Assembly (NCBI RefSeq): GCF_003344865.1
Contig: NZ_CP031165.1
Location: forward strand, 5,089,910-5,153,909
Length of the DNA stretch: 64,000 nucleotides
From: Euzebya pacifica
GTDB lineage: Bacteria; Actinomycetota; Nitriliruptoria; Euzebyales; Euzebyaceae
Direction of reading: 5' to 3'
Positions within the stretch are counted from its first letter, which is position 1, and every line of letters starts with the position of its first letter. The translations under genes and the position numbers were made by a program. The notes beneath the pieces are model-generated. The model saw only the letters and a list, made by a program, of their open reading frames with translations. It searched no databases and was not told the origin of the DNA. Below, in pieces: positions 25,550 to 51,683 of the stretch.

Positions 25550-25611
25550 CGGGCGGTCGAGCGGCAGCGGCCGCGCGGCCCTCCTCTCCGTCGGTCGCGG
25601 ATGATCGGGCT

Positions 25612-25766
25612 CTGCGCTGCAGCCGGTCTCCTGGCTGCCAGATCGACACGTCGTCGCCGGCCTTCCCGGACACGAGGTCCAGTGGTCTGGTTGGCGGGAC
25701 GCTCCCTGGTCACAGTTGCGACGACAGCGCCGGATTCTCACCGGCTTCCCGTGCACTGCAGCATTC
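25612..25766 (-). promoter_or_regulatory. Cobalamin (AdoCbl) riboswitch
   Basis: The minus strand reads GGGAAGCCGGTGAGAATCC (25750-25732), then GTCGCAACTGTGA, a GGGAAGGC segment and the B12 box GCCAGGAGACC (25635-25625). The closing helix P1 pairs CTGCAGC (25756-25762) with GCTGCAG (25616-25622). This matches the class-I cobalamin aptamer order. It would switch off the FhuF-like/cobB/cobO operon when adenosylcobalamin is plentiful. The mechanism is probably translational, as the aptamer ends 62 nt before the start and no strong terminator is evident. Confidence 0.93.
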
Positions 25767-25886
25767 GAGCGACGCGGACCGTAGCACGGTTCGGGTCGAG
25801 CCTAACGACCGGGCCGGGACGCATCGGTCGACCCGGGAGGCGTAGCGTCCAGACCAGCCGACCCCGCCGCTTCCTGGAGGCAAGTC

Positions 25887-33690: not shown

Positions 33691-37797
<4,107 letters not shown>

Positions 37798-37874
37798 GAA
37801 TGTTCTCCTAAACCCTTGGTGGCGCAGCGCGCCGCAGTCTTGTTGTTCCGGTCGATCCAGCGACTAGGTCGCGA

Positions 37875-41492
<3,618 letters not shown>

Positions 41493-41836
41493 GGCTTTGC
41501 TCCTGGAGTTGTCGGGTGTGCACGACGACCAGTCCCCAATGGGTTCGGGTCGCGGGAAGTGACTTCGCGGCCGGCGCGTGTGGGCGCTAGCCGGTCACCG
41601 AGCAGGGCGGTGCGGTGACGTGTCCTGGGCTGCTGGTGGACACCGGACTCGCATGACCTCGGAGCATCGTCATGGACCGGTACGGCCCACTGCAGCAACG
41701 ACCACCCGCACACGCAACAACGCAGCCCAAGACAAACCTGTGCTGCGTGGATACAGACCCGACCTTGCGGTCAAGCGTGCTGGTGCTCGTGACGACTCCC
41801 TCGCCGGGTGCGAACCCGAAAGATTGGCAAACGTGA

Positions 41837-41864
41837 AGAATACACGGCAGAGCACGCCGCGCAA
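41837..41864 (-). promoter_or_regulatory. Candidate rpoBC promoter
   Basis: TTGCGC (41864-41859), a 16-nt spacer and TATTCT (41842-41837). The leader would be ~340 nt. The context GGGTTGCG resembles the predicted rplJ -35. A second TTGACC at ~41767-41772 lacks a good -10. I see no gene in 41493-41927. Confidence 0.5.
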
Positions 41865-41927
41865 CCCACCTGTCCGGGACGTCGGTGGACGTCCGGAGGG
41901 CGTTTGCCGCGGAGAACGATAACACGA

Positions 41928-41964
41928 CGAACGCCGGGCGGTCGCGATGACCACCCGGCGTTCG
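41928..41964 (-). terminator. Terminator after rplL
   Basis: 16-bp arms (41928-41943 with 41949-41964, one G-U) around GCGAT, 30 nt past rplL. The minus-strand tail TCGTGTTATCG follows GCGTTCG. It separates rplJL from rpoBC transcription. Confidence 0.8.
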
Positions 41965-41993
41965 GTGCTGGGCTGTGGGCCCGGCGGGTACTG

Positions 41994-42371
41994 CTACTTG
42001 AGGGCGACGGAGGCGCCGACGGCCTCGAGGGCCTCCTTGGCCTTCTCCGCGTCTTCCTTGGACGCACCCTCGAGGACGGGCTTCGGGGCGCCGTCCACCA
42101 GCTCCTTGGCCTCCTTCAGGCCCAGGCTGGTGATACCGCGCACCTCCTTGATGACCTTGATCTTCTGGTCGCCAGCGGACTCGAGGATGACGTCGAACTC
42201 GGTCTTCTCCTCCTCGGCGGCAGCCTCGCCACCGCCACCGGCGGCAGCGACGGCGACCGGCGCGGCGGCGACGACGTCGAAGTGCTCCTTGAACTTGTCG
42301 CGGAACTCCTTGAGCTCGAGGAGGGTCATTTCCTCGAAGGCGGAGATCAGTTCGTCGACGGTAATGGCCAT
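41994..42371 (-). CDS. rplL: 50S ribosomal protein L7/L12
   Basis: 125 aa stalk protein. N-terminal dimerisation helix [20 protein letters not shown], Ala/Gly hinge, and C-terminal factor-binding domain [20 protein letters not shown] with [13 protein letters not shown]. It recruits EF-Tu, EF-G and IF factors encoded nearby. Confidence 0.98.
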
Positions 42372-42446
42372 GTCAGTTACTCCTTGATGTGTGGGGTGAT
42401 CGGGGTGATCGGGTCTGGCAGTGCGAAATGGAAGAGCCGAACGGCC

Positions 42447-42968
42447 CTAGCCGTCCTTCTTGGCCTCGAGGGCCTCCATGAGTCCGGCCGTCTCGCCGAG
42501 CATGTCGTCGACCATCCGCGGCATGTAGGCCAGCATGGTCTCGAACATCCCGACGAAGCTGGCCAGCAGCTCCTCCTGGGACTCCAGGTCCGCCAGGGCG
42601 GCCGCGTCGTCGGCGTCGAGGTAGTTGCCCTCGAGGATGGCGCCCTTGATGACGAGCTGCGGGTTGTCCTTGGCGAAGTTCTTGAGGGCCTTGGCGGCGG
42701 ACGCGATGTCCTCACCGGTGTAGGCCAGCGCCGTCGGACCGCTCAGGGTCGCGTCGGGCACGTCGTACCCGAGCTCCTTGGCGGCCAGCCGGATCAGCGT
42801 GTTCTTGGCGACCTTGTAGGTCGCGCCGCTCTCGCGAAGCTTCTCGCGAAGCTCGGCCATCTGCGGGACCGACAGGCCACGGTAGTCGGTCAGGACGGTC
42901 GCGGTGGTGGCGGACAGGTCATCCCGGACCCGCTCTACCACGGCGGTCTTCTGGGGGCGCGCTCCCAT
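42447..42968 (-). CDS. rplJ: 50S ribosomal protein L10
   Basis: 173 aa stalk base. TVLTDYRGLSVPQMAELREK and YKVAKNTLIRLAAKE are typical; the C-terminal helix binds L7/L12 dimers. The ATG at 42968 has TTAGGAG upstream; an in-frame extension to 43094 lies inside a probable regulatory leader. It is separated from rplA by an 11-kb accessory block. Confidence 0.97.
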   Translation of the reverse strand: MGARPQKTAVVERVRDDLSATTATVLTDYRGLSVPQMAELREKLRESGATYKVAKNTLIRLAAKELGYDVPDATLSGPTALAYTGEDIASAAKALKNFAKDNPQLVIKGAILEGNYLDADDAAALADLESQEELLASFVGMFETMLAYMPRMVDDMLGETAGLMEALEAKKDG

Positions 42969-43034
42969 TGGGGCTCCTAAGGGCTGGAGGGTGAGTGAGA
43001 TCTGTGTGTTCGGGGCTCGGCGCCGAAACGACGA

Positions 43035-43063
43035 ACGCCCCGGCCGAGGACGGCGCAGGGCGT
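43035..43063 (-). terminator. Terminator or attenuator in the rplJ leader
   Basis: Arms ACGCCCTG/CGGGGCGT (one G-U) plus inner GCCG/CGGC with loop TCCT. The minus-strand tail is TCGTCGTTTC, as in other terminators here. It lies downstream of the predicted rplJ promoter and 66 nt before the rplJ start. Confidence 0.6.
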
Positions 43064-43155
43064 GATGGGCGCACACGATGTGCTGCTCACTCACCTGCGC
43101 TGGTTCGCTTCAGTTCGCGTACACGCGAACGCCAACGGTCTCGGGCGGACCCGGG

Positions 43156-43207: not shown

Positions 43208-44995
43208 TCAGAGGAGGTGGAGGATGGGCTCCAGGTGCGGCGGGGTGACCCGGGCGATGCGCTTGACGTTGCGCAGGTTGGCCCACGTGACGTTGTCGGT
43301 GGTCGAGTTGCCGCCGAAGGTCCCGCAGCCGAGCGTCAACGTGGGCGCCAGGTCGGTGGTCAGGCCGCACACACCCTGCGAGCCGGGCGAGTTGACCAGG
43401 ATTCGCGAGGCGGGGACGGCATCGGCGAACGAGGCGATCCGGACCTCGGAGGCGGTGTGCACGATGGCGGTGTGGCCGGTGCCCATCTTGTCCAGCAGCG
43501 CCAGGCACAGCCCGAGCGCCGCGTCGTCGCCGTCGACGGTGAAGACGGGCAGGAACGGCGACAGCTTCTCGCTGGTGACGGGCGAGGACAGGTCGGGATC
43601 GGCGCGGAATACGAGGACCTGGATCTCGTGCGGCCGGCTGATCCCGAGGAACCCCGCGAGCGTCTGGGCAGACTGCCCCAGCACCTCGGGCCGGAATCCC
43701 GTGCCGTCCTCGGTGGTGACCGCGTCCAGGAAACGCGCCGCCTCGTCCTCGTCGAGCACGGCGGCCCCCATCGCGGCCAGCCGGTCGAGCAACCCGTCGA
43801 CCACGGCTGCGTCGACGACGAGGTTGTGCTCGGCGCCACAGATCAACCCGTTGTCGAAGCTCTTGGAGGCGATGATCGACCCGGCCGCCTGGTCCAGGTC
43901 GGCGTCGGCGGCAACCCAGCAGGGCGTGTTGCCGGGGCCGACCCCGATGGCGGGGGTGCCCGAGGAGTAGGCGGCCCGGACCATGCCGGGCCCGCCGGTC
44001 GCCAGGATGAGCGCCACGTCGGGGTGCGCCATGAACCGCGCGGTCCGCTGGCGGCTGGCCCGTTCGCGCACCCACTGCACCGCGTCGACGGGCAGGCCGT
44101 GCCGCGCCAGGACCGTGTGGACCAGCTCGCCGACCTCGTCGGCCAGGGGCAGGCAGATGCGGTGGAAGGACAGGATGATGGCGTTGCCGGACCGCAACGC
44201 GGACAACACCTTGAACATGGCCGTCGCGACCGGGTTGGTCACGGGGATGATCCCGAAGACGAGCCCCACCGGCGCCGCCACGTCGGTCACGGTGTCGGTG
44301 CCGCCGAGGGGTCCACGGCCAACCGCCCCGGCCATAGACCGGTGCACCCCGAGCGCGGCCCAGGCGTTCTTCATCGTCTTGTGGTCGACGCGTCCGATGT
44401 GGGTGACCTCGACGGTCCGTGCGGCGAGCGTCGCGGCGGCCGCGCCGAACGCCTCGGCCAGGTCAGCGATGACGGCGTCCATGACGTCCTCGGGGACGGC
44501 GTCGAGGGCCCGCTGCGCCGCGACGCCACGGGCGACGGTCTCCTCCACGACCAGGTCGGGAGCCGAGGCCTCCAGCACGCTGGCGAGGCGGCCGCTGGTG
44601 GCACGCAGCTTGGTGGCGAGGTCCGTGGCGATCAACCGGACCACGGACACGGCCAGGTCGGGCGCCTCGCCGGTCATTCGCAGCAGGGCGTCGCGGGTCA
44701 GCCAGCGACCACGAACGGGTCCCTCGGCGATGGCGGTGGCCGAACGGGGCTGCCCGTCGAGCAAGCCGATCTCCCCCAGGATCTCGCCGGCGTCCAGGTA
44801 GCCGAGGACGACATCGGTGTCGAGGTGCTCGCCCGGCACCTCCAGCCGGACCACCCCGTCGTCGAGGAACAGGCAGCTGTCCCCCGGGTCGCCCGCGGTG
44901 ACGATCTGCTCGCCGTCGCCCCACTCGGCATCCATGACCCAGCGCGACAGCTCGGCGGGCAGTTCGGAACGGGACGGCTCGACGACGCTGCTCAT
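43208..44995 (-). CDS. Cyclic-nucleotide-binding domain fused to acylating aldehyde dehydrogenase
   Basis: 595 aa. Residues ~16-125 form a CNB (CRP-like) domain whose phosphate-binding cassette AGEILGEIGLLDGQPRSAT has the expected Glu and Arg. Residues ~145-595 match the AdhE/EutE-type CoA-acylating acetaldehyde dehydrogenase: GIIPVTNPVATAMFKVLSAL, GPGMVRAAYSSGTPAIGVGP and nucleophile Cys386 in SFDNGLICGAEHNLV. Expected reaction: aldehyde + CoA + NAD+ to acyl-CoA + NADH, or the reverse, gated by a nucleotide. There is no alcohol dehydrogenase half. It overlaps the NDH-2 gene by ATGA. Confidence 0.85.
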   Translation of the reverse strand: MSSVVEPSRSELPAELSRWVMDAEWGDGEQIVTAGDPGDSCLFLDDGVVRLEVPGEHLDTDVVLGYLDAGEILGEIGLLDGQPRSATAIAEGPVRGRWLTRDALLRMTGEAPDLAVSVVRLIATDLATKLRATSGRLASVLEASAPDLVVEETVARGVAAQRALDAVPEDVMDAVIADLAEAFGAAAATLAARTVEVTHIGRVDHKTMKNAWAALGVHRSMAGAVGRGPLGGTDTVTDVAAPVGLVFGIIPVTNPVATAMFKVLSALRSGNAIILSFHRICLPLADEVGELVHTVLARHGLPVDAVQWVRERASRQRTARFMAHPDVALILATGGPGMVRAAYSSGTPAIGVGPGNTPCWVAADADLDQAAGSIIASKSFDNGLICGAEHNLVVDAAVVDGLLDRLAAMGAAVLDEDEAARFLDAVTTEDGTGFRPEVLGQSAQTLAGFLGISRPHEIQVLVFRADPDLSSPVTSEKLSPFLPVFTVDGDDAALGLCLALLDKMGTGHTAIVHTASEVRIASFADAVPASRILVNSPGSQGVCGLTTDLAPTLTLGCGTFGGNSTTDNVTWANLRNVKRIARVTPPHLEPILHLL

Positions 44996-46656
44996 GCTTC
45001 CTGCTCCTCCACGACGACCGGGGCTGGGGTGAGATCGATGTCGGCGGGATCCGAGGGCAGGCCGGTCGGGCGCATCCGCACCGCCTCGCCGAAGGACTCC
45101 AGGGTCTCCGACAGGGTGCGGGCCCCGGACCGGCCCATCGTGACGACCTCCACGGTGGTGAGGGCCCGGATGCTGGCCGTCCGTCGGACCTCCTCGAACA
45201 CCGCGGTCTCGCCGAAGTGCTGGCCGGGGCCGAGCGTCGCCAGGACCTGGCCGTCACGGACGACCTCGACGCGCCCCTCCCAGATCAGGTACAGCTTGCG
45301 GCCGATCTCGCCCTGCTCGAAGACGACCTGTCCGGCCTCGAACCGCTCGCGATCGAGCCCCACCGCGTCATCGAGGGGCAGCTGGGTGATCTCCCGGCCG
45401 GTGAACGGCGTCAGCGTCCAGTCCAGCAGCAGCCGCAGCCGTCGGTCCCAGACCGGCACGAACGCCAGCAGGAACACCTTCCACAGCACCCACCCCGCGA
45501 AGCCGGTGATCGGCACTCCGCGCAGGTGGGCCACGGCGTTGCGTCGGCCCAGGGCGCAGGCATCACCGAGCTCGGTGAACCCGAACGGCTTCGGTGGCCT
45601 GCCGGCCCTGACCCGCAGGATGTTCCGGCCGATCCGCCAGCCATGCATCATCGCGAACAACGCCAGCTGGGGACACGTCCCGCCCTTGGGATGCGGCACC
45701 GCCGCGCAGTCCCCTCCAGCCCACAGGCCGGTCGTCCCGGGCACGGCAACGGTGTCGTCCACGATCACGCGTCCACGGTCGTCGCGTTCGACCTGGAGCT
45801 GGTCGAGGAGGGGGCTCGACGCGGTCCCGGTGGAGGAGATGACGGTCCGTGTCGGGATGGAGGTGCCGTCGTCGAGCCGCACGTCCGTCGCCGTCGCACC
45901 GATCACCCGCGTACCCGTGCGGACGTCCAGGCGGGTGCGGCGAGCGATGAACCGTTCGGCCCGGTCGACGAGCCGGTCGTGCCGGCCCTGCAGCTCGGGC
46001 AGGATCCGTTCGCCGCTGTGGACCAGCACCACGTTGACCTCGTCCCGGTCGACGTCGGCGAACTCGTCACGGCACAACCGGCTGGCCCACTCGTCGAGCT
46101 CGGTGGCGACCTCGACCCCGCCGAACCCACCGCCGGCCACGACCACGGTCAGCAGCCGCCGGCGTTCGACCGGGTCGGGTTCGATGGCGGCCATCTCCAT
46201 CATCTGCAGCAGGTGGTTCCGGGTGTGCCAGGCGTCGCGATAGTCGCGCAGCAGCAGCCCGTGCTCGCGCAGGCCCGGATAGCCATCGACGTCATCGGCG
46301 ACCCCGACGGACACGACGAGGTGGTCGTAGCCCAGGACCTGCTCGCGTCCGTCGAGCAACCGCGAGATGGTCAGCTGCTGCTCGTCGAGGTCGATGGCCG
46401 TGACCTCGGCGTTCATGAAGCGGGCCGGCCGGAAGACGCGACGGGCGGGCGACAGGATCGCCTGCGGCTGGATCCGTCCCGACAGCATCTCGCCGACGAA
46501 GCCGTGGAAGGCATGGAAGTTGGTGCGGCTGACGATGACCAGCTCGACGTCGCCCCTGCGCACGGCGCGGCGCAGCGCCTTGACCAGGAACAGCGCGCAG
46601 TAGCCACCGCCGATGCAGACGATCCGCGTAACCGCAGGTTCTGTCGTGCCCAACAC
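44992..46656 (-). CDS. Type II NADH dehydrogenase with C-terminal cyclic-nucleotide-binding domain
   Basis: 554 aa. FAD motif IVCIGGGYCALFLVKALR near the N-terminus, NAD motif VVVAGGGFGGVEVATEL, and GLWAGGDCAAVPHPKGG before a membrane-associating stretch (GWVLWKVFLLAFVPVWD). A CNB domain occupies ~434-520 with cassette GQHFGETAVFEEVRRTAS. Predicted to pass electrons from NADH to quinone under ligand control. GTG start at 46656 preceded by GAGGGGAG; a TTG 3 nt later is also possible. Confidence 0.87.
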   Translation of the reverse strand: MLGTTEPAVTRIVCIGGGYCALFLVKALRRAVRRGDVELVIVSRTNFHAFHGFVGEMLSGRIQPQAILSPARRVFRPARFMNAEVTAIDLDEQQLTISRLLDGREQVLGYDHLVVSVGVADDVDGYPGLREHGLLLRDYRDAWHTRNHLLQMMEMAAIEPDPVERRRLLTVVVAGGGFGGVEVATELDEWASRLCRDEFADVDRDEVNVVLVHSGERILPELQGRHDRLVDRAERFIARRTRLDVRTGTRVIGATATDVRLDDGTSIPTRTVISSTGTASSPLLDQLQVERDDRGRVIVDDTVAVPGTTGLWAGGDCAAVPHPKGGTCPQLALFAMMHGWRIGRNILRVRAGRPPKPFGFTELGDACALGRRNAVAHLRGVPITGFAGWVLWKVFLLAFVPVWDRRLRLLLDWTLTPFTGREITQLPLDDAVGLDRERFEAGQVVFEQGEIGRKLYLIWEGRVEVVRDGQVLATLGPGQHFGETAVFEEVRRTASIRALTTVEVVTMGRSGARTLSETLESFGEAVRMRPTGLPSDPADIDLTPAPVVVEEQEA

Positions 46657-46696
46657 GAACTCCCCTCAGGAGTACGACGCCCTCTGCGGATCGATG

Positions 46697-48424
46697 CTAC
46701 TCCCGCTCCGGGGCGGGCAACAGGGCCTCGGCGCCGACCGGACGGCGCAGGTCCCCTGCGGCCTCGAGCGCCCGTTCCGCCGCGACTCGGCCAGCCCGGA
46801 TCGCCCGGTCGACCTGGCCGAAGTCCAGCAGGTCGAGGTCGTCGACCACCGGATCGATGACCAGGCGTGCCGCGCGTCGGCCGCGATCGACCGCGGTGTG
46901 GCTGGCCAGCGCCATCGTGGTGGTCAACGTCTCGACGATGGTCGGCAACCCCGCCGGTCGCCCGGCGTCGCCACGCAGGCGACGCATGGTGACGTCGGAG
47001 GCGATCACCTGGCCTTCGTCCTGACCGCACATGGTGAGGACGGGCAGGTTGTCCAGCACACCCCCGTCGACGACGACCTGGCCGTTCCAGCGCCGGGGCG
47101 GGGCCAGCCCCGGCAGCGACATCGAGCAGGCCGCCGCTTCCCACGTGGGGCCCCGCCGGTGCACGACGGTCGTGGCCCGGTCCAGCGAGGCGCTGACGGC
47201 GAACCACGACCGGGGCAGCTGCCGGACGTCGGTGTCGCCGAACACCCGCTGGAGCATCCGTTCGGCGTCCTCACCGCGGATGAGGGCCAGCCGCGGGACG
47301 GTCCAGTCACGAAAGGGGCGGTTGTCCACCAGCTCGCGAACGACGACCTCCCGAACGTCTGCGGCGCTGCGCCCCGTGGCCGCCAGCCCGCTGAGGAACG
47401 CCCCCATCGAGGTGCCACCGAACCGGTCGACCACCACCCCGGCGTCCTCCAGCGCCTCGAGGACGCCCACGTGGGCCAGCGCCCGTGCGCCCCCGCCCGA
47501 CAGCACCAGGCCCAGCGAACGGCCGCTGAGGCGCCGGGCGAGCCGCCCCAGGTCAGATCGGCGGTGCCCGTCGCGCAGCCGGTGGTGGGCCCGCGGACTG
47601 GTGGCGTCCTCCCATGCGTCCAGGGCAGCCGCCGGGCAGTCGCGGTCCCCCATCACCACCAGCTGGCAGCCGATCAGGTCGTCGCGATCGTGCAGCGGTG
47701 GGGTCGTCGGGCCGATCAGCAGGATCACTCGGTCGGCTTGGCGTGCGCACACCCGGCCCCACTCGCTGTCGGGCGTGCCCGCGTCGAGCAGCACGACGTC
47801 GTGCGTGCGCTCGAGCTGGTCCAAGCGGCGGCCGGTCCGCTGGGGCAGGACGTGCGGTGGGTGCCCCAACCTCGCGGACGGGGCGGTCAGCGTCGCGCAG
47901 CGAACCCCCTCCGTGGAGAAGGCCTCGGCAAGGGCGCCGGTGATCTCGGTGCAGCGGGCCGCGTCCTCGCACAGGACGGCCACGACGGTGCGCCGGCTGG
48001 CTGCATCGTGATCGGGGGGGTCTGCCCGCAGCATGCGCGTCACCGAGCCCAGCATGGCCGCAGCGAAGTCCGGATCCCCGAGCAACGGCGCGACGTCACG
48101 CTGGTGCAGCGCCAGCAGCTCGCAGTCGCGGACCGCTCGGGCCCCAGCCGAGCGGGTGCCCCCCGAGAGGAGGGCGAGCTCGCCGAGGGAGTCGCCGGCC
48201 TGCATCAACGCCACGACGCGCGAGGTCTCGCCGGTCGTCCGGACGATCTCCATCCGGCCGCTGCGCACGAGGAACAACGTGCTGCCGGGGTCGCCCTGCC
48301 GGAACAGCCATGCACCCCCCGACAGGTGCTGGGGCACGAGGCGCTCGGCGATGCGTTCCCGCAGGGGCAGCGGGAACCCAGCGGTCAACCTGAGCCCGGC
48401 CAGGACCGAGACGTCGGTGGTCAC
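46697..48424 (-). CDS. CNB-patatin phospholipase/esterase (NTE type)
   Basis: 575 aa. The CNB domain at ~15-125 has cassette AGDSLGELALLSGGTRSAG. A middle segment (145-280) resembles the linker of NTE-family bacterial proteins. The patatin domain at ~300-500 has oxyanion motif SGGGARALAHVG (309-320), nucleophile Ser339 in GGTSMG and Asp453 in VVDGG. Lipid acyl hydrolase by family. The GTG at 48424 has GAGGGG 7-8 nt upstream; the frame is open further but non-conserved. It is first of a three-gene minus-strand set; NDH-2 follows 40 nt later. Confidence 0.87.
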   Translation of the reverse strand: MTTDVSVLAGLRLTAGFPLPLRERIAERLVPQHLSGGAWLFRQGDPGSTLFLVRSGRMEIVRTTGETSRVVALMQAGDSLGELALLSGGTRSAGARAVRDCELLALHQRDVAPLLGDPDFAAAMLGSVTRMLRADPPDHDAASRRTVVAVLCEDAARCTEITGALAEAFSTEGVRCATLTAPSARLGHPPHVLPQRTGRRLDQLERTHDVVLLDAGTPDSEWGRVCARQADRVILLIGPTTPPLHDRDDLIGCQLVVMGDRDCPAAALDAWEDATSPRAHHRLRDGHRRSDLGRLARRLSGRSLGLVLSGGGARALAHVGVLEALEDAGVVVDRFGGTSMGAFLSGLAATGRSAADVREVVVRELVDNRPFRDWTVPRLALIRGEDAERMLQRVFGDTDVRQLPRSWFAVSASLDRATTVVHRRGPTWEAAACSMSLPGLAPPRRWNGQVVVDGGVLDNLPVLTMCGQDEGQVIASDVTMRRLRGDAGRPAGLPTIVETLTTTMALASHTAVDRGRRAARLVIDPVVDDLDLLDFGQVDRAIRAGRVAAERALEAAGDLRRPVGAEALLPAPERE

Positions 48425-48570
48425 ACGGCAACCCCTCGTGTCGGGCGCCGTGCATGCCAGCCGGCGGCCGTCAGCCGGCGCCAGCCGACGATACCGAGAA
48501 GCCGAGGAGGAGATCGGCCACCGACGAAGAATCCGTAGGGGACCCATACCGCCCATCCGAAAGGCATCCC

Positions 48571-48720
48571 GTGTCCCGCATGCTCGCCCTCGCCCTGTCA
48601 GCCGTCTTCGTCGCCGTGCTGGCCGGTCCGGCCGCGGCCGGCCCCGTCCCCACCACCGTGTGCGAGATCCAGCGCTTCATCGGCGTGGAGAACGTCAAGG
48701 AGTGCGAGACCGGCAGCTGA
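48571..48720 (+). CDS. Tiny secreted peptide
   Basis: 49 aa from a GTG at 48571 (AAAGG upstream) or 46 aa from the ATG at 48580. A clear signal peptide (MLALALSAVFVAVLAGPAAA) leaves a ~26-residue mature peptide with two cysteines spaced 15 apart (VCEIQRFIGVENVKEC), which could form one disulfide. No family recognised. It lies divergent from the CNB-patatin gene and upstream of the Cys-rich gene, with a CGGGACG/CGTCCCG hairpin (48731-48752) between. Confidence 0.6.
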   Translation: MSRMLALALSAVFVAVLAGPAAAGPVPTTVCEIQRFIGVENVKECETGS

Positions 48721-48773
48721 TCCGGCGTCGCGGGACGGTTGGGGTCGTCCCGGTACGGGGTAGGAGAAGTGCC

Positions 48774-49166
48774 ATGAGCACCGCTGACATCCTCCGGACC
48801 CATCCGTCCCGCGACACCTTCGACCTCGACGAGCTGGCCGCGGCCATCGACGCGGCCCTTCGGTGCGCCCAGACCTGCGCGACCTGCGCCGACGCCTGCC
48901 TGCACGGCGACGACCCGGCGTCGATGGTCACGTGCATCGACCTGTGCACGCAGTGTGCGGCGATCTGCCGGACCACGGCGGAGGTCCTGTCCCGCCCCGG
49001 TCCCAACGGCGACAGCTGGCGCGAGATCGTCAAGGCCTGCATCGCCACCTGCCGCGAGTGTGCGGCGGAATGCGGCAGCCACGACCACGACCACTGCCGC
49101 ATGTGCGCCGAGGCCTGCACCGCCTGCGCGGACGCCTGCGAGGCGCTCCTGGCCGTCGCCAGCTGA
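48774..49166 (+). CDS. Cys-rich four-helix protein, copper-storage (Csp/DUF326)-like
   Basis: 130 aa with 17 cysteines, mostly in CxxxC and CxxC spacing along predicted helices (RCAQTCATCADAC, CIDLCTQCAAIC, CIATCRECAAEC, HCRMCAEACTACADAC) and one His-rich loop (SHDHDH). This matches cytosolic Csp3-type copper-storage bundles; no signal peptide is seen. AGGAGA precedes the ATG. The copper nitrite reductase ~1 kb downstream supports a copper role. Confidence 0.85.
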   Translation: MSTADILRTHPSRDTFDLDELAAAIDAALRCAQTCATCADACLHGDDPASMVTCIDLCTQCAAICRTTAEVLSRPGPNGDSWREIVKACIATCRECAAECGSHDHDHCRMCAEACTACADACEALLAVAS

Positions 49167-49182
49167 CCCCCGGACACCACGT

Positions 49183-49211
49183 GCCGCCCCTCCCCACGGT
49201 GAGTGGGCGGC
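49183..49211. terminator. Hairpin between converging genes
   Basis: GCCGCCC (49183-49189) pairs with GGGCGGC (49205-49211); an internal CCAC/GTGG pairing is an alternative. It lies between the Csp-like gene (plus) and the DUF2993-like gene (minus) and may serve both. Confidence 0.5.
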
Positions 49212-49214
49212 CGT

Positions 49215-49922
49215 TCAGCGCGACAGCACGACCGGGTCCAGCGTGCCGCTGAAGACCAACCCGTCGGGTTCGACGACCACGCCGGTGACGACGACGCCGT
49301 CGGGGCTGTGCAGCGGGATCGGGTCGACCAGGCCGTCGAGGTCCCCGAGCAGCGCGATCGCCGCCTCGCCCACGACCCCGTCGGGCCGCACGATCAGCGC
49401 ATCGTCGGCGACGGACAGCGCCAGGGGGATGCGCAGCAGGCCGGCATCGACGACCAGCGCCTCGTCGGTCACCTCGAGCAGTCCGGCCAACAGGACCGGG
49501 ACGGCCGCCCGCACCTGATCCTCTGCCAGCACCGCCCGGAACGTCGCGGCGCCATCGGTCACGACATCACCGTCGAAGGCGATTCCGGTTGCCTCGACCT
49601 CGAGCCGCTCGATCACCACGGGCTGACGCTCCAACGGCACCGCGGCGGCGGTCAGTCTGAGCGTGTCGATCTGGCCGCCCAGCACCCCGAACGCTGCTGG
49701 CCGCGAGGTGATGTCCACCTCGACGGGCGCACCCAGCTGCGCCCCCACCTCCGTCGCGATGCGGGACTCGGCTCGGCCCACGATCACCGTCTCCCCGAGT
49801 GCCAGCAGCAGCCCGAGGACGGCGACGAGGACGAGCGCCAGCACTCCGCGGCGCTGCGCCCCCGTTCCGACAGGGGCGGACGGGGCATCGGCGGGGGCAT
49901 CGAGGGTGGCCACACCCCCCAT
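49215..49922 (-). CDS. DUF2993/LmeA-like membrane-anchored lipid-binding protein
   Basis: 235 aa. One N-terminal membrane anchor (RGVLALVLVAVLGLLLALGE), then a beta-rich domain: ESRIATEVGAQLGAPVEVDI, FGVLGGQIDTLRLTA and paired VEATGIAFDGDVV strands. This is the pattern of DUF2993 proteins such as mycobacterial LmeA, which bind phospholipid. The start is ambiguous: ATG at 49922 or GTG at 49913. Function inferred only at family level. Confidence 0.65.
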   Translation of the reverse strand: MGGVATLDAPADAPSAPVGTGAQRRGVLALVLVAVLGLLLALGETVIVGRAESRIATEVGAQLGAPVEVDITSRPAAFGVLGGQIDTLRLTAAAVPLERQPVVIERLEVEATGIAFDGDVVTDGAATFRAVLAEDQVRAAVPVLLAGLLEVTDEALVVDAGLLRIPLALSVADDALIVRPDGVVGEAAIALLGDLDGLVDPIPLHSPDGVVVTGVVVEPDGLVFSGTLDPVVLSR

Positions 49923-50111
49923 CCTCGGTCACGGGGCACGCCGCGAAACGTGCCGATCGGCCACGGCCCGTCTTCGCCAGTCACGGCACTCGAACCGGAC
50001 CGGGACCTACGACCCGCGCCCGAGGGGCCGGTTGCCTCTCATCGGCGACGTGAACCGGCGGTCCACTGGACCCATGGCCGCGACGCGGCCGAGCCGACGG
50101 AGGTGGTTGCT

Positions 50112-51683
50112 GTGTCCGAACGAACCGGTCCCGTGTTGCGTCGTCGTGAGCTGATGGGGGCGCTGGTCATCGGCGCAGGGGCTGCGGCTTGTTCTGCGAT
50201 GTCCGCTGACGAACGGCGTGTGGCCGACGCCGCGGCCAGCGAAGAGGCCGCCAGCACCCATCTGGCCGCGCTGACGTGGACACCGGGCCACGAGCTGCCG
50301 TCGATCCACCCCGAGATCGTGCCGGTGGCGTCGTTGCCGCAGGCGGACCCGGCGGAGCGACACACCTCCTACGTCCCCGAGATGCCACCAGCCGCGGCGC
50401 GGACCGAACCGGCGGTGTTCGACGTCGACCTGGAGGTGCTCGAGGGTGTCTGCCCGCTCGATCCGGCCGGCGAGGTGACCACGCTGATGTGGGGATACCG
50501 CGTCGCCGGTGACACCGACACGACCTGCGGCACGCCCGGACCGGTCCTGCGGGGCCGGGTCGGTGACGTCGCCCGCATCCGGCTGACCAATCTCCCCGGC
50601 AACACCATGGCGCACAACATCGACTTCCACGCCGTCACGGGTCAGGGCGGCGGTGCCGAAGCGCTGACGGTGCTGCCCGGTGAGGTTGCCAGCATCGAGG
50701 TGCGCCTGCTGTACCCCGGGGCGTTCATGTACCACTGCGCGTTCGGTGACGTGCCCGAGCACATCGTCCGGGGCATGTACGGCATGTTCGTGGTGGACCC
50801 CGAGACTCCGATGCCCCACACCGACCTCGAGTGGGCGCTCGTGCAGTCGGAGTGGTACGTGCAGGAGCCCGACGCCGACGGCCTTGCCGAGCTCGACCGC
50901 GATGCGCTGGTGGCCGAGACACCCCGGTACGTGACCTTCAACGGCAGGACCGATGCGCTGGCAGGCGACAACGCGCTGCGCATGGAGGTGGGACAGCGCG
51001 CACGGATCTTCATGGTCAACGAGGGCCTGAACCTGGCGTCGAACTTCCACCCGATCGGCAGCCACTGGGATGCGGTGTGGCCGGAGGCCGCGATCCACGA
51101 GGTCAACCAGCCGATCCGCGGGTCACAGTCCACGCTGGTGGTTGCTGGCGGGGGCACCGTGGTCGACCTCGTCGGCCTCGTGCCGAGCACCATCATCCTG
51201 GTCGACCATGCGCTCGTCCGAACGTTCTACAAGGGCGCGATCGGGCAGGTGGTCGTCGAGGGACGCAACAACGCCGAGCTGTTCTCGAGCACCGCGGCGG
51301 CAGCCAGCGGGGCTGCGGCGGCAGCCACGAACGAGGACGCGCCGCCGGTGGCCGAGGGACCGGCCGACGTCGTCAGCACCGACACGGTCAGCATCCCCGA
51401 CGGCGCCTTCGACCCCGCGAACAGCGACCGTGCCTACGACCCACCCGCGATCCTGGTGTCCGTGGGCACCACCGTCACGTGGGCCAACGACGACGTCCTT
51501 CCCCACACCGTGACAGCCGGGACGACCGACGGACGCACCCCTGGCCCCGACGGCCGGTTCGATTCGGGCGACATGGCCCCCGGCGACACCTTCGCGTTCA
51601 CCTTCGACGAGTCGGGCGAGTACCCCTACTTCTGCGCGCCACACCCGTGGATGCAGGGCCTCGTGATCGTGGAGGAGGGCTGA
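50112..51683 (+). CDS. nirK: Copper nitrite reductase with extra C-terminal cupredoxin domain
   Basis: Reduces nitrite to NO; 523 aa. Probable Tat-lipoprotein signal: RRRELMG at 10-16, then Cys27. The NirK core (~100-390) has type-1 copper ligands H168, C209, H217, M222, type-2 ligands H173, H208, H366, catalytic D171 and H313, and the signature VDHALVRTFYKGAIGQ. An Ala-rich linker (390-420) leads to a plastocyanin-like domain with its own type-1 site (H465, C508, H511, M514), presumably a built-in electron donor. GTG start with GGAGGTGG 6 nt upstream. It ends 7 nt from the converging hydrolase gene. Confidence 0.9.
   Translation: MSERTGPVLRRRELMGALVIGAGAAACSAMSADERRVADAAASEEAASTHLAALTWTPGHELPSIHPEIVPVASLPQADPAERHTSYVPEMPPAAARTEPAVFDVDLEVLEGVCPLDPAGEVTTLMWGYRVAGDTDTTCGTPGPVLRGRVGDVARIRLTNLPGNTMAHNIDFHAVTGQGGGAEALTVLPGEVASIEVRLLYPGAFMYHCAFGDVPEHIVRGMYGMFVVDPETPMPHTDLEWALVQSEWYVQEPDADGLAELDRDALVAETPRYVTFNGRTDALAGDNALRMEVGQRARIFMVNEGLNLASNFHPIGSHWDAVWPEAAIHEVNQPIRGSQSTLVVAGGGTVVDLVGLVPSTIILVDHALVRTFYKGAIGQVVVEGRNNAELFSSTAAAASGAAAAATNEDAPPVAEGPADVVSTDTVSIPDGAFDPANSDRAYDPPAILVSVGTTVTWANDDVLPHTVTAGTTDGRTPGPDGRFDSGDMAPGDTFAFTFDESGEYPYFCAPHPWMQGLVIVEEG

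What the first reader, a model, noticed from the sequence alone, without database searches (positions are those of the whole stretch)
43208..48424. Three adjacent enzymes, each fused to a cyclic-nucleotide-binding domain
Seen: consecutive minus-strand genes encode CNB-patatin, NDH-2-CNB and CNB-acylating aldehyde dehydrogenase, the last two overlapping by ATGA. All three CNB domains keep a plausible phosphate-binding cassette (GE...RSA/RTA). Known: CNB-patatin (NTE type) occurs in actinobacteria, and NDH-2 and EutE/AdhE-type dehydrogenases are families of their own. Inference: one nucleotide signal (cAMP or another) could set, at the protein level, NADH oxidation by the respiratory chain against aldehyde/CoA redox and lipid turnover. 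I know of no described locus with all three fusions, and a CNB-acylating-ALDH fusion looks new. This is the strongest candidate here for an undescribed system.
Basis: partly seen in the sequence, partly recalled or inferred. Interest (0 to 1): 0.72.

Follow-up and report, generated by a model that had tools for sequence, protein, structure and literature searches.

The report
Three enzymes sharing one nucleotide-sensing domain
An actinobacterium carries a small gene cluster, kept together across two bacterial phyla, in which a lipase-like protein, an NADH-dehydrogenase-like flavoprotein and an acyl-CoA-forming aldehyde dehydrogenase each carry an intact cAMP-type sensor domain, so one small signal molecule could switch fat, aldehyde and NADH metabolism together directly at the enzymes.

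Summary
In detail: three minus-strand genes encode CNB-patatin, NDH-2-like-CNB and CNB-acylating aldehyde dehydrogenase (ALDH), with intact CNB pockets. The trio is conserved: three Euzebya-type genomes, two other genomes of the class, four Nocardioidaceae and one Gemmatimonadota, with gene order varying; CNB-ALDH and NDH-2-like orthologues are about 50-60% identical between lineages. CNB-ALDH forms one clade. In 36 CNB domains the cAMP-contacting Glu and Arg never vary; the next residue is Ser in 13/13 ALDHs and Thr in 11/11 NDH-2-like proteins. Class III cyclase genes lie beside such genes in three lineages; in one same-genus genome the cyclase overlaps CNB-patatin by GTGA. One relative adds a CNB-acyl-CoA oxidase. 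I infer protein-level control of acyl-CoA/aldehyde, NADH and lipid steps by one cyclic nucleotide; ligand and sign are unshown. Corrections: the 'NDH-2' lacks the quinone motif AQxAxQ and the WxxG Trp; bacterial pyridine-nucleotide-oxidoreductase/CNB fusions were catalogued in 2007 (PMC2246266); cAMP-gated Mt-Pat is a precedent. The CNB-acylating-ALDH fusion and the multi-enzyme cluster appear undescribed in the papers I could search.

The parts
46697..48424 (-). CNB-patatin gene (NTE type); first gene of the cluster; GTG start at 48424 is favoured because it matches the start of the orthologue in the same-genus genome G001
   Evidence: patatin motifs GGGAR, GTSMG and DGG are present
48083..48331 (-). 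CNB domain of the patatin; cassette GELALLSGGTRSA
   Evidence: Pfam E 8.4e-19; PDB alignment to PKA-R/CRP type
47036..47509 (-). patatin catalytic domain
   Evidence: Pfam PF01734 E 2.4e-29
44992..46656 (-). NDH-2-like flavoprotein with C-terminal CNB domain
   Evidence: best PDB relative is a non-electrogenic NADH:ubiquinone reductase, E 9.8e-40
45391..46626 (-). two-dinucleotide-binding flavoprotein domain (GGGYCA, YD, GGGFGGVE, GD kept; quinone motif AQxAxQ replaced by ALFAMM, WxxG replaced by SSTG)
45115..45348 (-). CNB domain of the flavoprotein; cassette GETAVFEEVRRTA
   Evidence: Pfam E 6.3e-20; best PDB matches are PKG CNB domains
43208..44995 (-). CNB-acylating aldehyde dehydrogenase; overlaps the upstream gene by ATGA (44992-44995)
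44675..44917 (-). CNB domain of the ALDH; cassette GEIGLLDGQPRSA
   Evidence: Pfam E 2.6e-12; PKA-R alignment
43250..44593 (-). EutE/AdhE-type acylating aldehyde dehydrogenase domain; catalytic Cys386 codon at 43838-43840

Best explanation
The three genes form a post-translational cyclic-nucleotide switch on metabolism. A class III cyclase makes a cyclic nucleotide, most likely cAMP. The nucleotide binds the CNB domain built into each enzyme and changes its activity, so that lipid/acyl release (patatin), aldehyde-to-acyl-CoA conversion with NADH formation (acylating ALDH) and NADH oxidation (NDH-2-like flavoprotein) respond together without new transcription. Shown by sequence: the fusions, intact catalytic residues of ALDH and patatin, intact FAD/NADH motifs of the flavoprotein, invariant ligand residues, conserved clustering across two phyla, one clade for CNB-ALDH, and cyclase neighbours in three lineages. 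Inferred: that the ligand binds, that it is cAMP, that it changes activity and in which direction, and that the flavoprotein reduces quinone.
For: Domains and catalytic residues. Cassette Glu and Arg invariant in 36/36 CNB domains, the structural Gly in 34/36, RSA in 13/13 ALDHs and RTA in 11/11 NDH-2-like proteins; in the same genome CNB domains of some other proteins have lost them. All three fusions together in three same-genus genomes, G010, G043, four Nocardioidaceae and Gemmatimonadota G806, in several gene orders. Co-occurrence in a 396-genome Actinomycetota sample: CNB-ALDH in 6, NDH-2-like-CNB in 6, both in 5 (hypergeometric p 5e-10, not corrected for relatedness). CNB-ALDH is one clade (SH-aLRT 100) and CNB domains group by enzyme. 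Cyclase overlapping CNB-patatin by GTGA in G001, convergent cyclase-FHA gene in all four Nocardioidaceae, divergent cyclase-kinase fusion beside an NDH-2-like-CNB in G089. A fourth enzyme, CNB-acyl-CoA oxidase, lies in the G043 cluster. Six class III cyclases are in the window's own genome. Precedent: cAMP-activated Mt-Pat controls acyl-CoA enzymes in M. tuberculosis (PMC9995111).
Against: No ligand or activity data. In the window itself no cyclase is adjacent. The four Nocardioidaceae cyclases lack the usual Lys and Asn of the catalytic site, and the G001 cyclase has Ala for Lys, so some may be inactive or make something else. The flavoprotein lacks two NDH-2 hallmarks. Patatin is less conserved (30-43% between lineages) and was not seen in the G901 and G091 loci. 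The trio is rare: CNB-ALDH in 6 of 396, 4 of 295 and 3 of 298 genomes sampled.
Confidence: 0.58

Rival explanations
1. The CNB domains are structural or recruitment modules (dimerisation, membrane or partner binding) and the cluster is kept because the enzymes share a pathway; no small-molecule switch operates.
For: Some bacterial CNB-fold families have lost the canonical cassette or bind other ligands (PMC2246266). The AlphaFold model places a long helix (112-143) between CNB and ALDH that could serve assembly (modest overall confidence).
Against: The residues that contact the cyclic phosphate and ribose, plus the Gly coupled to Arg209, are nearly invariant across three enzyme families and two phyla; a purely structural module would not need them. 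Cyclases are neighbours in three lineages.
Confidence: 0.18
2. The three enzymes answer to different ligands (for example cAMP for the RSA-type ALDH, cGMP for the RTA-type NDH-2-like protein), so the cluster is a set of separately gated enzymes and not one switch.
For: The residue after the cassette Arg is family-specific: Ser 13/13 in ALDH, Thr 11/11 in NDH-2-like, mixed in patatin. RTA is the cassette of PKG and HCN, and the best PDB matches of the NDH-2-like CNB are PKG domains.
Against: The RTA/RSA difference alone does not fix selectivity in bacterial CNB domains (own knowledge). No guanylate-specific cyclase was identified.
Confidence: 0.16
3. An ordinary neighbourhood of unrelated CNB fusions: CNB fusions are common and adjacency is accidental.
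For: CNB-patatin is common; the own genome has a second one.
Against: Recurrence of the same fused trio with different gene order in Nitriliruptoria-type genomes, Nocardioidaceae and Gemmatimonadota.
Confidence: 0.03

Closest known systems
Mt-Pat (mycobacterial cAMP-activated lysine acetyltransferase, CNB-GNAT)
   Same: an enzyme gated at protein level by a CNB domain, acting on acyl-CoA metabolism (PMC9995111)
   Different: one enzyme that modifies others; here several catalytic enzymes each carry their own CNB domain and lie in one cluster
Bact_Pyrredox, family 13 of Kannan et al. 2007 (PMC2246266)
   Same: N-terminal pyridine-nucleotide oxidoreductase fused to CNB with canonical cassette
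   Different: described with tandem CNB domains and cassette GEMGLISGRRRGATVRA; here one CNB domain, RTA cassette, NDH-2-like sequence, clustered with two more fusions
Neuropathy target esterase (NTE)-type CNB-patatin
   Same: CNB, P-loop-like region and patatin in that order; catalytic Ser/Asp motifs
   Different: in the window the P-loop-like domain is below Pfam's cut-off (25.1 against 27 bits), and the gene is clustered with two further CNB enzymes
EutE/AdhE-type acylating aldehyde dehydrogenases (e.g. PDB 5j78)
   Same: about a third identical, catalytic Cys and fold kept
   Different: N-terminal CNB domain; a separate clade from the non-CNB homologues; no alcohol dehydrogenase half
[quoted passage not shown]
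   Same: best PDB match, FAD and NADH motifs, E182 as equivalent of E172, C-terminal region weakly matched
   Different: quinone motif AQxAxQ and WxxG Trp replaced; C-terminal CNB domain

Membership tests
Canonical cAMP-type CNB domain (PF00027) | profile match over curated cut-off in all three window proteins | tested here: met
   47, 71.4 and 67.8 bits against cut-off 27.5
Canonical cAMP-type CNB domain (PF00027) | cassette Glu, Arg209 and coupled Gly169 (PMC2246266) | tested here: met
   Glu and Arg 36/36, Gly 34/36 in the family; all present in the window
Canonical cAMP-type CNB domain (PF00027) | binds a cyclic nucleotide | not testable with these tools
   needs a binding assay
Acylating aldehyde dehydrogenase (EutE/AdhE type) | sequence and fold relationship to acylating rather than ordinary ALDHs | tested here: met
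   best NCBIfam models are AdhE and acetylating ALDH, though below their equivalog cut-offs; PDB 5j78 E 7.7e-81; Foldseek E 1.4e-32 to 5j7i
Acylating aldehyde dehydrogenase (EutE/AdhE type) | catalytic Cys | tested here: met
   F-D-[NH]-G-x-[IV]-C in all CNB-ALDH family members
Acylating aldehyde dehydrogenase (EutE/AdhE type) | CoA-dependent activity | not testable with these tools
   needs an enzyme assay
NDH-2 | GxGxxG (last Gly may be Ala), YD, GD and GxGxxGxE motifs (PMC5299459) | tested here: met
   GGGYCA, Y110 D111, G315 D316, GGGFGGVE with E182
NDH-2 | quinone-site motif AQxAxQ or its named variants | tested here: not met
   ALFAMM at the aligned place; orthologues also differ there
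NDH-2 | WxxG near the NADH adenine (99% conserved) | tested here: not met
   SSTG; S-S-x-G or S-C-x-G in the orthologues whose motif was read
NDH-2 | membrane-binding C-terminal domain (PF22366) | tested here: inconclusive
   22.3 bits, below cut-off 27.7; 27.3 in an orthologue
NTE-type CNB-patatin | CNB plus patatin with GGGxR, GxSxG and DGG | tested here: met
NTE-type CNB-patatin | NTE P-loop-like domain (PF24179) | tested here: inconclusive
   below cut-off in the window, above it in two relatives
Bact_Pyrredox CNB family (PMC2246266) | tandem CNB domains after an N-terminal pyridine-nucleotide oxidoreductase | tested here: not met
   one CNB domain only
Mt-Pat type | GNAT domain after the CNB domain | tested here: not met
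   no GNAT match in any of the three

The most novel reading that the evidence does not exclude
An anciently shared cyclic-nucleotide 'enzyme regulon': a cyclase plus a set of metabolic enzymes (lipase, acylating ALDH, NADH-oxidising flavoprotein, in places acyl-CoA oxidase) each carrying its own CNB domain, giving protein-level second-messenger control of carbon and redox flow in bacteria without a transcription factor.
Probability: 0.45. Interest if true: 0.8.

Novelty: new variant of a known kind. Interest (0 to 1): 0.64.

Why it matters
Bacterial cAMP is usually treated as a transcription signal acting through CRP; direct allosteric control of metabolic enzymes by CNB domains has few worked examples (Mt-Pat). 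A conserved cluster with the sensor on every enzyme, and with a cyclase in the same apparent operon in one species, makes it directly testable whether bacteria set acyl-CoA, aldehyde and NADH flow with one second messenger at the protein level.

Tried and rejected
Chance adjacency was rejected by conserved synteny. Plasmid or phage cargo: no plasmid carries a full-length CNB-ALDH, and viral contigs gave none. RNA elements: nothing at the locus. Promoter/terminator scan of the region: none. The AlphaFold model of the NDH-2-like protein was too poor to use (mean pLDDT 56); that of the ALDH protein is usable for the fold of the CNB and ALDH parts only (mean pLDDT 69), and the fold searches listed only ALDH matches, so the CNB part was barely tested by structure. 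Encapsulin 2B and acetyltransferase Pat hits in NCBIfam reflect the CNB domain only. Literature searches for NDH-2/CNB or ALDH/CNB fusions gave no description; most subscription papers are not held. The single genome-contig scan uses exact peptides and is not exhaustive. Two early scripts read gapped alignment rows in place of proteins; they were repeated cleanly, which is the one used.

Full report
Host. The window lies at 5,089,910-5,153,909 of the larger of two contigs (5.80 and about 0.57 Mb). The loci called 'Euzebya' below are those the tool marks as same genus.

Observation. All three fusions are real and correctly placed. The order on the minus strand is CNB-patatin, NDH-2-like-CNB, CNB-ALDH. 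The gaps are 40 bp and minus 4 bp (ATGA), so one transcript is likely. rplJ-rplL-rpoB-rpoC appear to follow 113 bp downstream on the same strand (rplJ by Pfam; the others by position and length, inference).

What the proteins are. The ALDH is of the acylating EutE/AdhE type: about a third identical to the Geobacillus acetylating ALDH 5j78/5j7i, catalytic Cys386 present, same fold in the model. The patatin keeps its oxyanion, Ser and Asp motifs. The flavoprotein is nearest to NDH-2 in the PDB and keeps the FAD and NADH signatures including the catalytic Glu, but at the aligned positions the quinone motif AQxAxQ reads ALFAMM and WxxG reads SSTG. Orthologues deviate likewise. It should be called NDH-2-like until a quinone assay is done.

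Ligand pocket. PDB alignments place the cassette Glu and Arg on those of PKA-R, PKG and CRP-type proteins. Over 36 CNB domains from 13 loci the Glu and Arg never vary, and the Gly coupled to Arg209 (PMC2246266) is kept in 34. The residue after Arg is Ser in all 13 ALDHs and Thr in all 11 NDH-2-like proteins. In the same genome a CRP-like protein and a C-terminal CNB on another protein have lost these residues.

Conservation. Full-length CNB-ALDH occurs in Euzebya x3, G010, G043 and G091, in 4 of 295 Nocardioidaceae including Nocardioides immobilis, and in 3 of 298 Gemmatimonadota. Reading the loci shows all three fusions adjacent or near in ten of these thirteen. Orders are patatin-NDH2-ALDH (Euzebya), NDH2-ALDH-patatin (G010), ALDH-patatin-NDH2 (Nocardioidaceae, G806), and NDH2-ALDH plus CNB-acyl-CoA oxidase plus CNB-patatin (G043). 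G901 has NDH2-ALDH, G424 ALDH-patatin, G091 ALDH alone. In 396 Actinomycetota genomes CNB-ALDH and NDH-2-like-CNB are each found in six, and together in five. CNB-ALDH forms one clade against non-CNB homologues (SH-aLRT 100). CNB domains cluster by enzyme, so each fusion seems old and inherited with its enzyme. NDH-2-like CNB fusions reach further, to a Rhodobacter and a Gemmatirosa plasmid.

Source of the signal. In Euzebya G001 a GAF-class III cyclase gene precedes CNB-patatin with a GTGA overlap, so cyclase and all three CNB enzymes sit in one apparent operon. In four Nocardioidaceae a cyclase-FHA gene is the convergent neighbour. In G089 a cyclase-Ser/Thr-kinase-PASTA fusion is divergent to a membrane protein-CNB gene and an NDH2-CNB-FHA-FHA gene. 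The catalytic residues differ: complete in G089, Ala for the substrate Lys in G001, Lys and Asn missing in Nocardioidaceae (the reading of residues rests on general knowledge of class III cyclases). The window's genome has six class III cyclases elsewhere. Neighbours in two of the Nocardioidaceae loci read are an acyl-CoA synthetase (L032) and a CoA transferase (L063), again acyl-CoA chemistry.

Mechanism. I propose that a cyclic nucleotide binds each CNB domain and adjusts the attached enzyme, tying acyl release, acyl-CoA/aldehyde conversion and NADH oxidation to one signal. The sign of regulation cannot be read from sequence. The invariant Ser/Thr difference leaves open that ALDH and the NDH-2-like protein prefer different nucleotides.

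Novelty. CNB-gated enzymes are known (Mt-Pat, PMC9995111), and a bacterial pyridine-nucleotide-oxidoreductase/CNB family was listed in 2007 with the remark that NADH production may involve CNB functions (PMC2246266). Neither an aldehyde dehydrogenase fusion nor such a cluster appears there, and my literature searches found none. I rate it a new variant of a known kind.

Noticed in passing
window 33691-43094 (-): The cluster lies directly upstream (113 bp) of what look like rplJ-rplL-rpoB-rpoC on the same strand in two same-genus genomes, an odd place for a metabolic operon.
   Followed up: partly
window 48033-51683 (+): Divergent neighbours are a Csp1-like Cys-rich copper-storage protein (C-terminal part about 48816-49166) and a large cupredoxin/copper-nitrite-reductase-like multicopper protein (49203-51683).
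   Followed up: no
window 48570-48720 (+): A possible small secreted peptide of about 46 aa with a signal-like N terminus and two Cys lies between the patatin gene and the copper-storage gene.
   Followed up: no
L045 13545-16991 (+): A 1148-aa fusion in the G043 cluster: N-terminal CNB, an unassigned middle part of about 340 residues, and an acyl-CoA oxidase; a fourth CNB enzyme.
   Followed up: partly
L107 5456-11846: G089 locus: cyclase-Ser/Thr kinase-PASTA fusion, divergent to a membrane protein with C-terminal CNB and an NDH2-CNB-FHA-FHA protein; suggests crosstalk of cyclic nucleotide and phospho-signals.
   Followed up: partly
L112 4920-8163: Sinorhizobium fredii plasmid: an NDH-2-like gene without CNB overlaps a class III cyclase gene with a complete catalytic site.
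   Followed up: no
L095 1405-2901: An NDH-2-like protein without CNB (G035, long branch) falls next to the trio's NDH2-CNB clade; possible loss of the domain.
   Followed up: no
window 25604-25798 (-): Cobalamin riboswitch, Rfam RF00174, 93 bits.
   Followed up: no
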